From: Halorussus ruber
Lineage (GTDB): Archaea; Halobacteriota; Halobacteria; Halobacteriales; Haladaptataceae
Direction of reading: 5' to 3'
Length of the DNA stretch: 64,000 bases
Assembly: GCF_004765785.1 (NCBI RefSeq)
Contig: NZ_SBIT01000009.1
Coordinates: forward strand, 1 to 64,000
Made by a program: the position numbers and the translations under genes. Positions 59,245 through 64,000 of this stretch are shown one piece after another. Below the pieces are notes generated by a model. It ran no database searches and was not told the DNA's origin. It saw only the letters and a list, made by a program, of their open reading frames with translations. Within the stretch, counting starts at the first letter, position 1. Each line of letters starts with the position of its first letter.

Positions 59245-59319
59245 GCTCCGTTGGTGTAGTCCGGCCAATCATCTTGCCCTCTCACGGCAAGGACCAGGGT
59301 TCAAATCCCTGACGGAGCA
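59245..59319 (+). tRNA. tRNA-Glu (anticodon CTC)
   Basis: A complete 75-base cloverleaf can be drawn. The acceptor stem is GCTCCGT/ACGGAGC and the anticodon stem TTGCC/GGCAA with loop CTCTCAC, giving anticodon CTC. The T-arm is CAGGG-TTCAAAT-CCCTG, and A is the discriminator base. CCA is not encoded, as usual in archaea. No intron is visible. It lies 120 bases upstream of a large DNA methyltransferase gene; tRNA genes are frequent integration points for islands. Confidence 0.95.
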
Positions 59320-59439
59320 CTTCTTTCCGCTCGTTTCTCACGACTGTCACTTCTCGGTGAGTCACGACGACGTACTGCTCAGGCTCACTTGACAAAACCT
59401 AATGCCCTCCTGCTGAATCGCACACAGCATACGGAACTC

Positions 59440-62400
59440 ATGGCAGGCGAGTCTCTCTCCCGGCAGAGGGCACAACTGGACACGGCCGAGCGCGAACACC
59501 TCGAAGGCGTGGTCGCCGAGATGCGCGAGCGCGTCGAGGAGAACGTCGAGTTTCGGCTCTCGCAGATGGGCCTCGACGCCGAACCCGGCGACAGCGCCGC
59601 GCTGGACGACGAGGAGCGCCAACTCGTGGAGGCCATCGAACTGGAAGCCGAGGACGACCAGAGATGGGACGCTGCGCGCGCAGAGTACATCACGGGCGTC
59701 GGCTACACCGTGGTCAATCGCCTCGCGGCGCTCCGGTGCATGGAGGTCCGGGGGTTCCTCGACGAGGAGGTCACCGTCTTCAAAGACGACGGCCTGACCC
59801 CCGCGGCCGAGACGCTGGTCTACGAGGAGTTCCTGCTCGAAGACGAGGCCATCCTGACCGCGTACCGGGACGTCTGCGACGAGTTGGCCGAGGAAATCGA
59901 AATCCTGTTCGACCGCGACACCCCCTACAGTCAGGTGGACCCCGACGCCGACACCTTCGAGGACCTCTGCGGACTGTTGGACGAGGTCCCAGACGAGGTC
60001 TGGCGGGCAGACGACGTGCTGGGGTGGGTCTACGAGTACTACAACGCCAGCCAGTTGTCGGCGGTGCGAGAGCGCATGCGGACCGGTCGGTTCGACGCCG
60101 ACGACGTCGCGGTCGCCAACCAGTTCTACACGCCGCACTGGGTCGCGCGGATGCTCACCGACAACGCGGTCGGCAAGCCCCACCTGCTGGCGAGCGGCGA
60201 GCGAGACGCCTGCGTCGAGGCGCAGCGCGACCTCGCGCCGGAGGAGCGAATCGAGCGCGACCCGCGATACGACGCCTCGCCGGAGATTTCTGACCTCTGT
60301 ACCTACCTCGTGCCCTCCGAATCCGCCGACGCCGCGCCGGACCGCCACCCGTCCGAGATTCGAGTACTCGACCCCGCGATGGGGAGCGGCCACTTCCTGC
60401 TGTACGCCTTCGACGTGCTGGAGCGCATCTGGCGCGACGCGACCGACGCGGCCCCGGCAGAGATTCCGGGCAAGATTCTGGAACACAACCTCTACGGAAT
60501 CGACATCGACATGCGGGCCTGCCAGCTCGCGGCGTTCAACCTCTATCTGAAGGCCCGCGGACGCGCCGAGGACGAGGGCGACGACGACTTCGAGCTGCCG
60601 ACGCTCGGCGTCGTCTGCGCGGACAACCAGATTTCGGACACCACGAGAGCGCGCGAGATAATCGAGACGCTGGCCGAGACCAGCGACGACTTCGCCGAGG
60701 CGCTTTCGGGCGCCCTCGAAGACTTCCGGGAGACGCAGGGCCTCGGGAGTCTCCTCGACGTGAAGGGGACACTAGAGAGAAGCGCCTCCTCGGTCGGAGG
60801 CGAGGAGTCCCGACTCTCGGAGTGGATAGACCGACTCCACGAGGAAGTCGAGCGCGAGTCGGGCGACCGATTCCGCTACCAGAACCTCCGGAGTCTCCTC
60901 CGAGTCGTGCGTCTGCTGACCGAGGAGTACGACGCCGTGCTGATGAACCCGCCCTACGGGGGCCACCGCCGGATGCCCAAGCAGGTCAAAGAGTACGTGC
61001 AGGACCACTACGAGTTCAAGCCCGAGTACTACGCCAACTTCCTGGAGCAGTCCGGGCGACTCCTCAAGCCCCGCGGTCGAATCGGGATGCTGGTTCCGCG
61101 GTCGTTCATGTACAAGGAGTCGTTCGAGGACGTGCGCCGGGAACTGGTCGAACCCGACGGCGAGTTCGACTTCGACTTCCTCGTCGAGTTCGGCGAGGGC
61201 ATCCTCGACAACGCGACGGTCCGGACCGTCGGGACGGTCCTGACGAAGGGCGAGAGCGAAAATTCCCAAGAGGTCGGCGAGTTCGTCCAGTTGTCGGACG
61301 TGAGCGCCGACCGAAAAGAGGAGACCTTCGCCCGCGTCCTCGGGGACGACCCCGACGCGACGTGGCGACACCACTCTGTCGGGACCGACGAGTTCCGGAC
61401 CGTCCCCGGCGGGATGCTGACGTACTGGACGCCCTCGGGCCTTCGTGAACTCTACGCCAGCGACACCGTCTTCGACGCCGAGCAGGCGGACCTCGACCGA
61501 GCGGGAATCGGGTCGGCCAAGAAGGGCATCGACACGGGCGACAACGCCCGGTTCGTGCGCTACTCGTGGGAGTGCGGAGCAGAAGAGGACGACGAGAACG
61601 CCGCGAAGGCGCGCTGGCGACCCTACGCCAAGGGCGGCGAGCGCAGTTGGTTCCACTACCCCGACGACCTCCGGGTGCTGTGGGGCGAGGAAGGAACCGA
61701 AATTTCGAGGTGCGACAGTTCGACCATCCGGAACCGGGACTTTCAGGGCAGAGAGGGCGTCACGTGGCCGCTCATCAAGGACTCGGGCCACCGGTTCGCA
61801 CAGTTCGGACCCGGCGGCGTCTCGGACAACGGCGGGCCGTGCTTCTACCCCGAGGAGGAATCGACCGCGTACCTGACTGCCCTGCTCAATAGTACGATTT
61901 ACGCTGGTTTAATGTTGGCACAGACGCCCGAGAGACAGTGGAATCTGTCCGACATCGCCATCCTGCCGTACTTCGACGCTTCCGAGGAGGCCAGAGCGCG
62001 CCTGACCGAGGCCGCAGACGAGTTGACTGCCCTCGTCAACGAGTTCGAGTCCTTCCGACTCCGGTCGGGGCGCTACGGCGAGACCCTGAGCGAGTACGAG
62101 ACTCTGGCCGAGTTCGTCGCCGAACGCGCCGACGCCGTCGAGGAGTTGGTCGGCGAGATGCGCGAGCGAAAGGACGAAATCGACGCCGTGGTGGCCCGAG
62201 AGTTGGGCATCGGCGACGGCGTGCTGGCCGAAATCGAGCGCGAGGCCGACCTGCGATACGACGGCTTCGAGAAGGTTCCCTACGCGAGTTCGGACGTGCC
62301 GACCGACGAGGAGTCGGTCTGTCGGCGACTCCTCTCGCACCTCGTGCTGAAGGCGGTTCGGGGGAGCGACGACGGAATCGTGGACGTGAGCGCCAGATTC

Positions 62401-63558
62401 CAGCGCGGCGAGGAGCTTCACGACGCGATTGCGGACGAGATAGACGACCTGTTCGAGTCTCCTCCGGCGGACGTCCTCGCGGAAATCGACCGGACGCTGG
62501 GCTCTCGGTCGGCCGAGTCGTCGCCGTACCCCAACGTCGAGTGGTGGGTCCGCGAGGAATTCTTCGACGCGCACCTCTCGCAGTTCGAGAACGCGCCGGT
62601 CGTCTGGCGGCTGACGACGGCGCGGTTGGTCTCGGACCCCGCGGGCGAGGGCTTGGGCTGTCTGGTCGATTACGGGGCCGTCGACGCCTCGCTGTTCGAC
62701 CGACTCCAGACCCGGTACCTCGAACCCCGGAAGGCGGACCTGCGCGAGCGCCGCGCCGCCGCCGAGCGCCGCCGGGGAGACGACTCGCTGTCGGCGTCCG
62801 AGCAGGCCGCGGCCGCCGAGGAGTGCGAGCGGTGCGTCAGCGGACTGGAGCAAATCGAGGCCTTCGAGGCGAGGGTGCAGGCGCTGTTGGACGACTCGCC
62901 CCGCGACTGGGGGCCGGACGAGCGCGAGCGAGCAGAGCGATTGGGGGGCAAGGTGGCGACTTTCCGCGAGCAGACCGCGGAGAAGTTGGCCAAGTTGGAC
63001 CGACTCGCGGAGCGACACGACCGCGAGTGGTTCGCGGACACGTTCAGCCCGACTTTCTTCGAAACGGTCGAGGAGAATCGGGAAGAGTGGACGAGCGCGC
63101 TGGACGACCTGCAAGCGGCGTGCGAGGCCTACGCTCGTCCCGCCGACGAACCGGTCGCGGCCCGCCACTACGACCTGCTCTCGTACTTCCCCGATTTGGC
63201 CGGGTCGGACCACTATTCGAGCAACGGCGTCCTGTTCACGGCCTACTACTTCGAGCGCGAGGGGAGTCCGTACCTGACCGACGACGGGGAACCGAAGGAG
63301 ACCCTCCCCGACGAGACGGCCGAGATTCTGGCGGACCTCGCGGCGGGCGTGGACGAGTTCGAGTCGCTCGCCGACGAGATAGAATCGGAGTGCAACGCCC
63401 TGAGAAAGTCACTCGACGCCGACTGGAGGAGCCGCGCGCTCGCCGAAATCACGACGGCGGGGTACAGCCCCGAGCGGAAACACGGCGTGGCGGTCAACCT
63501 CGAACCGCTCGCCGAGGCGAAAATCGTGCCCGAGAGCGTCGAGGAGCGAGTGCTGTGA
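59440..63558 (+). CDS. pglX: PglX/Eco57I-like adenine-specific DNA methyltransferase
   Basis: This 1372-residue protein has the N6-adenine methyltransferase motifs: SAM-binding DPAMGSGHF (311-319) and catalytic NPPYGG (from 503). The conserved FYTPHWVARML segment near residue 228 precedes them, as in PglX, the BREX methyltransferase. The C-terminal 600 residues hold target-recognition and helical regions (LNSTIYAGLMLAQTPERQWN near residue 816). No nuclease motif is seen. ATG 59440 (MAGESLSRQRAQLD) is preferred to a TTG at 59389. No other BREX gene is next to it in this window, so it may be a solitary methyltransferase or the first gene of a system extending beyond 64000. Confidence 0.88.
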   Translation: MAGESLSRQRAQLDTAEREHLEGVVAEMRERVEENVEFRLSQMGLDAEPGDSAALDDEERQLVEAIELEAEDDQRWDAARAEYITGVGYTVVNRLAALRCMEVRGFLDEEVTVFKDDGLTPAAETLVYEEFLLEDEAILTAYRDVCDELAEEIEILFDRDTPYSQVDPDADTFEDLCGLLDEVPDEVWRADDVLGWVYEYYNASQLSAVRERMRTGRFDADDVAVANQFYTPHWVARMLTDNAVGKPHLLASGERDACVEAQRDLAPEERIERDPRYDASPEISDLCTYLVPSESADAAPDRHPSEIRVLDPAMGSGHFLLYAFDVLERIWRDATDAAPAEIPGKILEHNLYGIDIDMRACQLAAFNLYLKARGRAEDEGDDDFELPTLGVVCADNQISDTTRAREIIETLAETSDDFAEALSGALEDFRETQGLGSLLDVKGTLERSASSVGGEESRLSEWIDRLHEEVERESGDRFRYQNLRSLLRVVRLLTEEYDAVLMNPPYGGHRRMPKQVKEYVQDHYEFKPEYYANFLEQSGRLLKPRGRIGMLVPRSFMYKESFEDVRRELVEPDGEFDFDFLVEFGEGILDNATVRTVGTVLTKGESENSQEVGEFVQLSDVSADRKEETFARVLGDDPDATWRHHSVGTDEFRTVPGGMLTYWTPSGLRELYASDTVFDAEQADLDRAGIGSAKKGIDTGDNARFVRYSWECGAEEDDENAAKARWRPYAKGGERSWFHYPDDLRVLWGEEGTEISRCDSSTIRNRDFQGREGVTWPLIKDSGHRFAQFGPGGVSDNGGPCFYPEEESTAYLTALLNSTIYAGLMLAQTPERQWNLSDIAILPYFDASEEARARLTEAADELTALVNEFESFRLRSGRYGETLSEYETLAEFVAERADAVEELVGEMRERKDEIDAVVARELGIGDGVLAEIEREADLRYDGFEKVPYASSDVPTDEESVCRRLLSHLVLKAVRGSDDGIVDVSARFQRGEELHDAIADEIDDLFESPPADVLAEIDRTLGSRSAESSPYPNVEWWVREEFFDAHLSQFENAPVVWRLTTARLVSDPAGEGLGCLVDYGAVDASLFDRLQTRYLEPRKADLRERRAAAERRRGDDSLSASEQAAAAEECERCVSGLEQIEAFEARVQALLDDSPRDWGPDERERAERLGGKVATFREQTAEKLAKLDRLAERHDREWFADTFSPTFFETVEENREEWTSALDDLQAACEAYARPADEPVAARHYDLLSYFPDLAGSDHYSSNGVLFTAYYFEREGSPYLTDDGEPKETLPDETAEILADLAAGVDEFESLADEIESECNALRKSLDADWRSRALAEITTAGYSPERKHGVAVNLEPLAEAKIVPESVEERVL

Positions 63559-63652: not shown

Positions 63653-64000
63653 ATGGGTCTCCGCGCCGTCTCCTCGCGTCGAATCGCGCTCTCGGTCGTC
63701 GTACTGGTCCTGCTGTCGGGATTCGCCGGATGCTTGGGCGGCGACCCCGGCGGTTCGGTCGAATCTGCGACCTCGACGGACCCCGGAGAGAGTTCGGCCG
63801 CCCCACTCGACGCTGACGGGGACGCTGGCAACCTCTCGATCCACTTCATCCACGTCGGGCAGGGAGCCAGCGTCCTCGTGGTCGGGCCCTCCGGCGAGAC
63901 GCTGCTCTACGACACGGGCAACTGGAACGACGACGGGAAGCACGTGCTGGAGTACCTCCGGTCGCAGAACATCACGCGCATCGACTACCTCGTGACCTCG
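63653..64000 (+). CDS. ComEC/Rec2-like MBL-fold lipoprotein, start only
   Basis: The first 116 residues of a gene that runs off the window. It begins MGLRAVSSRRIALSVVVLVL with a Sec-type lipobox LSGFAGC (Cys27), then a Ser/Thr/Gly/Asp linker. The first beta strands of a metallo-beta-lactamase fold follow: LSIHFIHVGQGASVLVVGPS (residues 61-80), ETLLYDTGNWNDDGKHVLEY and ITRIDYLVTS. The F-I/D-V-G-Q-G motif is typical of the C-terminal domain of ComEC and its stand-alone haloarchaeal relatives, which are secreted hydrolases. The active-site THxHxDH should follow just beyond the window. Confidence 0.82.
   Translation, partial: MGLRAVSSRRIALSVVVLVLLSGFAGCLGGDPGGSVESATSTDPGESSAAPLDADGDAGNLSIHFIHVGQGASVLVVGPSGETLLYDTGNWNDDGKHVLEYLRSQNITRIDYLVTS

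What the first reader, a model, noticed from the sequence alone, without database searches (positions are those of the whole stretch)
59245..63558. PglX-like methyltransferase without visible BREX partners, directly after tRNA-Glu
A 1372-residue methyltransferase with intact DPAMGSGHF and NPPYGG lies 120 bases after a tRNA gene, with no brxA/B/C, pglZ or brxL to its left, and a ComEC-like lipoprotein to its right. Family knowledge: PglX normally works inside BREX. A solitary copy may be an epigenetic regulator, an anti-restriction gene or the edge of a new defence island inserted at the tRNA.
Basis: partly seen in the sequence, partly recalled or inferred. Interest (0 to 1): 0.6.

Follow-up and report, generated by a model that had tools for sequence, protein, structure and literature searches.

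The report
Detached BREX-5 methyltransferase of dismantled system
A salt-loving archaeon keeps an intact-looking gene for the DNA-marking enzyme of a virus-defence system (BREX type 5) beside a tRNA gene, while only part of the rest of that system survives elsewhere in the genome, so this is probably a leftover of a system being taken apart rather than a new defence island.

Summary
In detail: a 1372-residue PglX (59440-63558) starts 119 bases after tRNA-Glu(CTC), catalytic motifs intact, no BREX gene nearby. It is a BREX-5 PglX (NF033454, 1684 bits, cut-off 900). It is not alone in the genome: contig C9 carries brxC1-brxB-brxC2, preceded by brxA with an in-frame internal deletion. pglZ and brxHII were not found anywhere. 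The tRNA-Glu site is a variable hotspot in the genus. In the same-genus H. salinisoli, pglX-pglZ-brxHII occupy this very site. No att repeat flanks this copy. Stand-alone PglX recurs polyphyletically in haloarchaea (10 copies, 9 genomes), sometimes with operons whose pglX and brxHII are deleted, sometimes beside tRNAs. Type I PglX needs BrxB, BrxC and PglZ to methylate, and all four surviving proteins here break more (one: second most) near-invariant positions than their relatives. Most likely this is a detached PglX of a BREX-5 being dismantled. A reduced, PglZ-free methylation module is the rival worth testing.

The parts
59245..59320 (+). tRNA-Glu (CTC), left border of a variable insertion hotspot
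   Evidence: ARAGORN; orthologous tRNA with different downstream contents in G407, G399, G162, G398
59440..63558 (+). pglX, BREX-5 type adenine-specific DNA methyltransferase, 1372 aa, intact
   Evidence: NF033454 1684 bits; PADLOC PDLC02518 1606 bits; only copy in the genome
59440..60039 (+). N-terminal helical region (residues 1-200), conserved at the level normal for the family
   Evidence: sliding identity 0.60/0.75, against 0.63/0.73 between other pairs
60121..60135 (+). QFYTP motif at the start of the methyltransferase domain (residues 228-232)
   Evidence: invariant in alignment A1; aligned with solved BrxX/PglX chains
60370..60396 (+). motif I (SAM binding) DPAMGSGHF
   Evidence: C314M departs from a near-invariant column
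60946..60963 (+). motif IV (catalytic) NPPYGG
61240..62079 (+). target-recognition region (residues about 601-880), the most variable part
   Evidence: identity 0.25-0.37 to relatives; ends within the stretch aligned to solved PglX structures
63653..64000 (+). start of metallo-beta-lactamase/lamin-tail lipoprotein gene (continues to C7:65179), right border of the hotspot
   Evidence: Pfam PF00753, PF00932; orthologues in the genus

Best explanation
The gene is the PglX methyltransferase/specificity subunit of a BREX-5 defence system, detached from its operon at a tRNA-Glu(CTC) hotspot. Shown: the genome keeps brxC1-brxB-brxC2 on another contig, with brxA cut down by an in-frame internal deletion; pglZ and brxHII were not found. 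Inferred: the system lost its restriction side (BrxHII, PglZ) and its operon fell apart. PglX may still bind SAM and its site, but, by analogy with type I BREX, it should not methylate without PglZ. It is thus most likely a slowly drifting leftover, at most conditionally active with BrxB/BrxC, and not a working solitary defence gene.
For: Family. Single copy. BrxC/BrxB on C9. brxA reduced to about 123 aa (residues 1-105 joined to about 268-279). PglZ absent with two models, the BREX-5-specific one finding PglZ in 60 of 63 pglX-bearing genomes. BrxHII absent: best 97 bits, against 1600-2000 for true copies. The same-genus relative H. salinisoli has pglX-pglZ-brxHII at this very site. Near-invariant columns broken: PglX 28/250 (rank 1), BrxC1 31/369 (rank 1), BrxB 6/47 (rank 1), BrxC2 14/315 (rank 2), against 4, 0 and 2 in H. 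salinisoli BrxC1, BrxB and BrxC2. PglX end branch 1.19, median 0.25. Comparable reductions (pglX and brxHII deleted, remote pglX kept) in G397, G108, G240, G335. PglX alone does not methylate in type I BREX: PMC11842806, PMC9122589, PMC11341690.
Against: Four long reading frames (1372, 1304, 221, 1264 codons) are uninterrupted, Walker A of BrxC1 and the PglX motifs are intact, and third-position differences still exceed first/second ones, so constraint is not gone. Several deletions keep the reading frame, which simple decay need not do. Whether BREX-5 PglX obeys type I rules has not been tested. The genome is a 31-contig draft; pglZ-brxHII could lie in a gap.
Confidence: 0.6

Rival explanations
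1. Reduced, split BREX-5 that still works as a methylation or sensing module: the tRNA-Glu-borne PglX acts in trans with BrxC1-BrxB-BrxC2 from contig C9, without PglZ and BrxHII.
For: All four proteins keep full-length frames and key motifs. The N-terminal 200 residues, the presumed partner interface, are conserved normally while the rest drifts. Remote full-length PglX plus an operon lacking its own PglX recurs in G397, G108, G240, G335. Deletions are often in frame.
Against: PglZ is required for methylation in type I BREX (PMC11842806, PMC9122589). The other reduced operons keep pglZ. BrxC1, BrxB and BrxC2 here also show excess changes at conserved positions.
Confidence: 0.22
2. Orphan methyltransferase cargo of a tRNA-integrating element: PglX was carried in alone and methylates by itself, as an epigenetic mark or to protect the element from other BREX-5 hosts.
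For: The site is a hotspot with tRNA-end repeats in G407 and G162. Three of ten stand-alone copies lie within 200 bp of a tRNA, P about 5e-5 under assumed tRNA numbers, weaker if the window is left out. G240's copy lies near integrase genes. A PglX-like group is reported as persistent in Haloterrigena (PMC10609329).
Against: No att repeat and no integrase beside this copy. Operon remnants in the same genome make detachment simpler than lone import. PglX alone does not methylate in type I systems.
Confidence: 0.13
3. Assembly or annotation artefact: the operon is complete but mis-assembled, with pglX joined to the wrong contig.
For: The genome is a draft. In H. salinisoli duplicated pglX breaks the assembly at exactly this kind of gene.
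Against: Only one pglX copy exists here, so no repeat should confuse assembly. Both loci lie far inside contigs of 326 and 248 kb. The tRNA and MBL borders match the genus. brxA is truncated within the contig.
Confidence: 0.05

Closest known systems
BREX-5 PglX (NF033454), e.g. in Haloarcula pellucida L041 and Halorussus salinisoli
   Same: Whole-length homology, same motifs and same domain order
   Different: Not in an operon; divergent core after residue 200 (about half identical to its nearest relatives); genome lacks pglZ and brxHII
Type I BREX PglX/BrxX (PDB 8c45, 9ewz, 8zek)
   Same: Residues 87-859 align, including the methyltransferase and target-recognition parts
   Different: About a quarter identical; the type I proteins work in a BrxBCXZ complex, part of which is missing here
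PglX-like persistent orphan methyltransferase HG5 of Haloterrigena (PMC10609329)
   Same: PglX-like enzyme reported as sporadic elsewhere in Halobacteria
   Different: That one is conserved in a genus; this one is absent from the sampled genus mates except H. salinisoli, whose copies are different
Reduced BREX-5 operons with remote PglX (G397, G108, G240, G335)
   Same: Operon without full pglX and without full brxHII, with an intact pglX elsewhere
   Different: They keep pglZ next to brxC2; the window genome has lost it

Membership tests
BREX-5 PglX (NF033454) | Score above the curated cut-off over the full length | tested here: met
   1684 bits against 900; model 2-869/1404 in the best of two stretches
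BREX-5 PglX (NF033454) | Methyltransferase motifs I and IV | tested here: met
   DPAMGSGHF and NPPYGG
BREX-5 PglX (NF033454) | Site-specific N6-adenine methylation | not testable with these tools
   needs a methylome or an enzyme assay
BREX-5 system | pglZ | tested here: not met
   no match with PF08665 or PDLC02562, which finds it in 60 of 63 pglX genomes
BREX-5 system | brxC1, brxB, brxC2 | tested here: met
   contig C9:202199-210566, PADLOC 1743, 244 and 1777 bits
BREX-5 system | brxHII helicase | tested here: not met
   best 97 bits, a general helicase level
BREX-5 system | brxA | tested here: not met
   only an internally deleted remnant of about 123 aa next to brxC1; the rest of the genome was not searched for brxA
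BREX-5 system | genes in one operon | tested here: not met
   pglX on C7, the others on C9
tRNA-integrated mobile element | second copy of the tRNA 3' end as attachment site | tested here: not met
   no repeat of 12 bases or more of the tRNA itself within C7:40-139 kb
tRNA-integrated mobile element | variable contents at the same site in relatives | tested here: met
   contents differ from genome to genome in the genus
persistent orphan methyltransferase | conserved in the genus without partners | tested here: not met
   full PglX in no other genus member except H. salinisoli, which has the operon

The most novel reading that the evidence does not exclude
BREX-5 in haloarchaea uses a dispersed, exchangeable PglX repertoire: stand-alone pglX genes, partly parked at tRNA genes, swap segments with operon copies by gene conversion and act in trans on operons that have lost their own pglX and even PglZ or BrxHII, as methylation-only or specificity-switching derivatives. 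The window would be an extreme case.
Probability: 0.2. Interest if true: 0.65.

Novelty: new variant of a known kind. Interest (0 to 1): 0.42.

Why it matters
It turns an apparent orphan into a traceable stage in how a multi-gene defence system comes apart: which parts go first (BrxHII, PglZ, BrxA) and which stay (PglX, BrxB, BrxC). Because PglX cannot methylate without PglZ in the type I systems studied, this genome is a natural test of whether that rule holds for type 5. The wider pattern, stand-alone PglX with sequence exchange between copies, would bear on how BREX changes its target sequence.

Tried and rejected
Att repeats of the tRNA around pglX: none. A second pglX or fragments in the genome: none. 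pglX, pglZ or brxHII remnants downstream of brxC2 on C9: none significant. Relatives in viral contigs: none; phage records hold only distant partial matches; plasmids carry BREX-5 PglX of other haloarchaea. Repeats bounding the C9 operon: only low-identity coding repeats. A single origin of stand-alone PglX: rejected, at least 6 changes on the tree, although the label is only slightly more clustered than chance. AlphaFold2 of residues 1-900: mean pLDDT 60, too poor to use, so no fold search was made. Codon-position test: shows overall constraint but cannot isolate the window lineage.

Full report
WHAT IS THERE. tRNA-Glu(CTC) lies at 59245-59320. The ORF that follows opens at ATG 59440 and ends at 63558, 1372 aa. 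It matches NCBIfam's BREX-5 PglX with 1684 bits (cut-off 900; BREX-1 model 491, just under its cut-off of 500) and PADLOC PglX with 1606 bits. It aligns over residues 87-859 with the solved type I PglX/BrxX chains. Motif I (DPAMGSGHF) and motif IV (NPPYGG) are present. To the left are a DUF7345/DUF7343 protein and other chromosomal genes. To the right, beyond the window, come a metallo-beta-lactamase/lamin-tail lipoprotein and genes that I recognise by sequence as queD- and queC-like. I saw no BREX gene among the ORFs to the right that I read.

THE REST OF THE GENOME. The window is G000:C7:1-64000 of a 4.32-Mb draft in 31 contigs, 99.97% complete. pglX occurs once. PglZ was not found with PF08665 or with the BREX-5-type model PDLC02562, which finds PglZ in 60 of 63 genomes that hold this pglX family. 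BrxHII was not found: best 97 bits, against 1600-2000 for true copies. But contig C9:202199-210566 (minus strand) holds brxC1 (1304 aa), brxB (221 aa) and brxC2 (1264 aa), with PADLOC scores of 1743, 244 and 1777 bits. Just upstream is a brxA remnant of about 123 aa, residues 1 to about 105 joined in frame to the last dozen residues of the 279-aa H. salinisoli BrxA. Downstream of brxC2 no remnant of pglX, pglZ or brxHII was found.

THE SITE. The interval between tRNA-Glu(CTC) and the lipoprotein gene differs in every genus member examined where both borders are seen: 1.1 kb in G162 with a 23-base tRNA-end repeat; about 8 kb in G407 with a 46-base imperfect tRNA-end repeat; other genes in G399. 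It is a hotspot. brxC1-brxB-brxC2 and the 5' part of a pglX end at another contig edge. The window's genus is thus probably Halorussus (inference). Around the window's pglX itself no tRNA repeat and no integrase was seen.

THE WIDER PATTERN. In 391 genomes of the class, pglX of this family is widespread, about 50-55% identical, and usually in a brxC-brxB-brxC-pglX-pglZ-brxHII operon, often with two pglX. Ten stand-alone copies in nine genomes were seen: the window, H. salinisoli (second copy), Haladaptatus DYF46, strain XH8 (two), Halorubrum 48-1-W, G335, G240, G173 and G200. In four of these genomes the operon has lost its own pglX (in-frame mini-ORFs of 135 and 120 aa in G397 and G108; a C-terminal stub in G240; a winged-helix ORF in its place in G335) and most or all of brxHII. 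Three of the ten stand-alone copies lie within 200 bp of a tRNA, two of them tRNA-Glu(CTC). The chance is about 5e-5 under an assumed 45-60 tRNAs per genome, weaker when the window, chosen for that feature, is left out. On the tree stand-alone copies are polyphyletic, at least 6 changes. Copies within a genome exchange segments. In H. salinisoli the operon and stand-alone copies share a collapsed core bounded by exact 127-base overlaps, with only 83-84% DNA identity over the flanking gene parts. In the complete genome of XH8 two distant stand-alone copies share 420 identical bases in the N-terminal part while the region just after it is 55% identical at protein level.

IS IT STILL WORKING? Residues 1-200 of the window's PglX are as conserved as in any relative; from residue 201 on it is the most divergent haloarchaeal copy, equally far from both core classes of the family. 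It breaks 28 of 250 near-invariant columns, the most of all 46 compared. BrxC1 (31/369) and BrxB (6/47) are also first, and BrxC2 (14/315) second, whereas H. salinisoli breaks 4, 0 and 2. G108, another reduced system, is second, third and first for BrxC1, BrxB and BrxC2. That is what relaxed constraint after loss of partners would look like, though adaptive change cannot be excluded. The frames are nevertheless open, and third codon positions still differ most, so decay is recent or partial. Published work on type I BREX shows that PglX/BrxX alone does not methylate and needs BrxB, BrxC and PglZ (PMC11842806), or those plus BrxA (PMC9122589); PMC11341690 also reports no methylation by PglX alone. 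This genome lacks PglZ, as far as the draft shows.

CONCLUSION. Shown: identity as BREX-5 PglX, detached position, hotspot, incomplete BREX-5 elsewhere. Inferred: origin by dismantling of an operon, and present inactivity. The main rival is a reduced trans-acting module. I found no paper in the held library that describes dispersed BREX-5 PglX or these reduced operons; the nearest is the PglX-like persistent methyltransferase of Haloterrigena (PMC10609329). The 2026 BREX survey (PMC12839542) groups type 5 with type 1; the passages read do not mention it.

Noticed in passing
L154:14464-14871 and L161:12368-12730: In-frame mini-PglX ORFs (135 and 120 aa: about the first 45 and last 75-100 residues) between brxC2 and pglZ, while a full pglX lies elsewhere in the genome.
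   Followed up: partly
L161:14884-15160: brxHII reduced in frame to residues 2-48 plus 931-967 behind pglZ in the same operon.
   Followed up: partly
L158:8611-9480: A 289-aa winged-helix regulator (HVO_2833_C, MarR/TrmB-like) occupies the pglX slot of a BREX-5 operon.
   Followed up: no
L046 and L069 (strain XH8, complete genome): Two distant stand-alone pglX share 420 identical bases in the N-terminal part but differ strongly right after it: gene conversion between dispersed copies.
   Followed up: partly
L151, L152, L112, L153 (H. salinisoli contig edges): Operon and stand-alone pglX share an identical core that breaks the assembly with 127-base overlaps.
   Followed up: yes
L159:9200-9500 and L163:14100-14303: tRNA-Arg(CCG) followed by partial repeats of its own 3' end (35 and 54 bases), near stand-alone pglX; L163 also has two integrase genes.
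   Followed up: partly
L041:7907-9857: 470-aa and 183-aa ORFs inside a BREX-5 operon with no PADLOC match; the 470-aa one recurs in Halorubrum saccharovorum (L040), the 183-aa one in H-GB1-1 (L035).
   Followed up: no
L055 (contig binned as Candidatus Nealsonbacteria): A haloarchaeal-type BREX-5 pglX-brxHII pair in a contig labelled as a bacterial MAG; probably a binning error.
   Followed up: no
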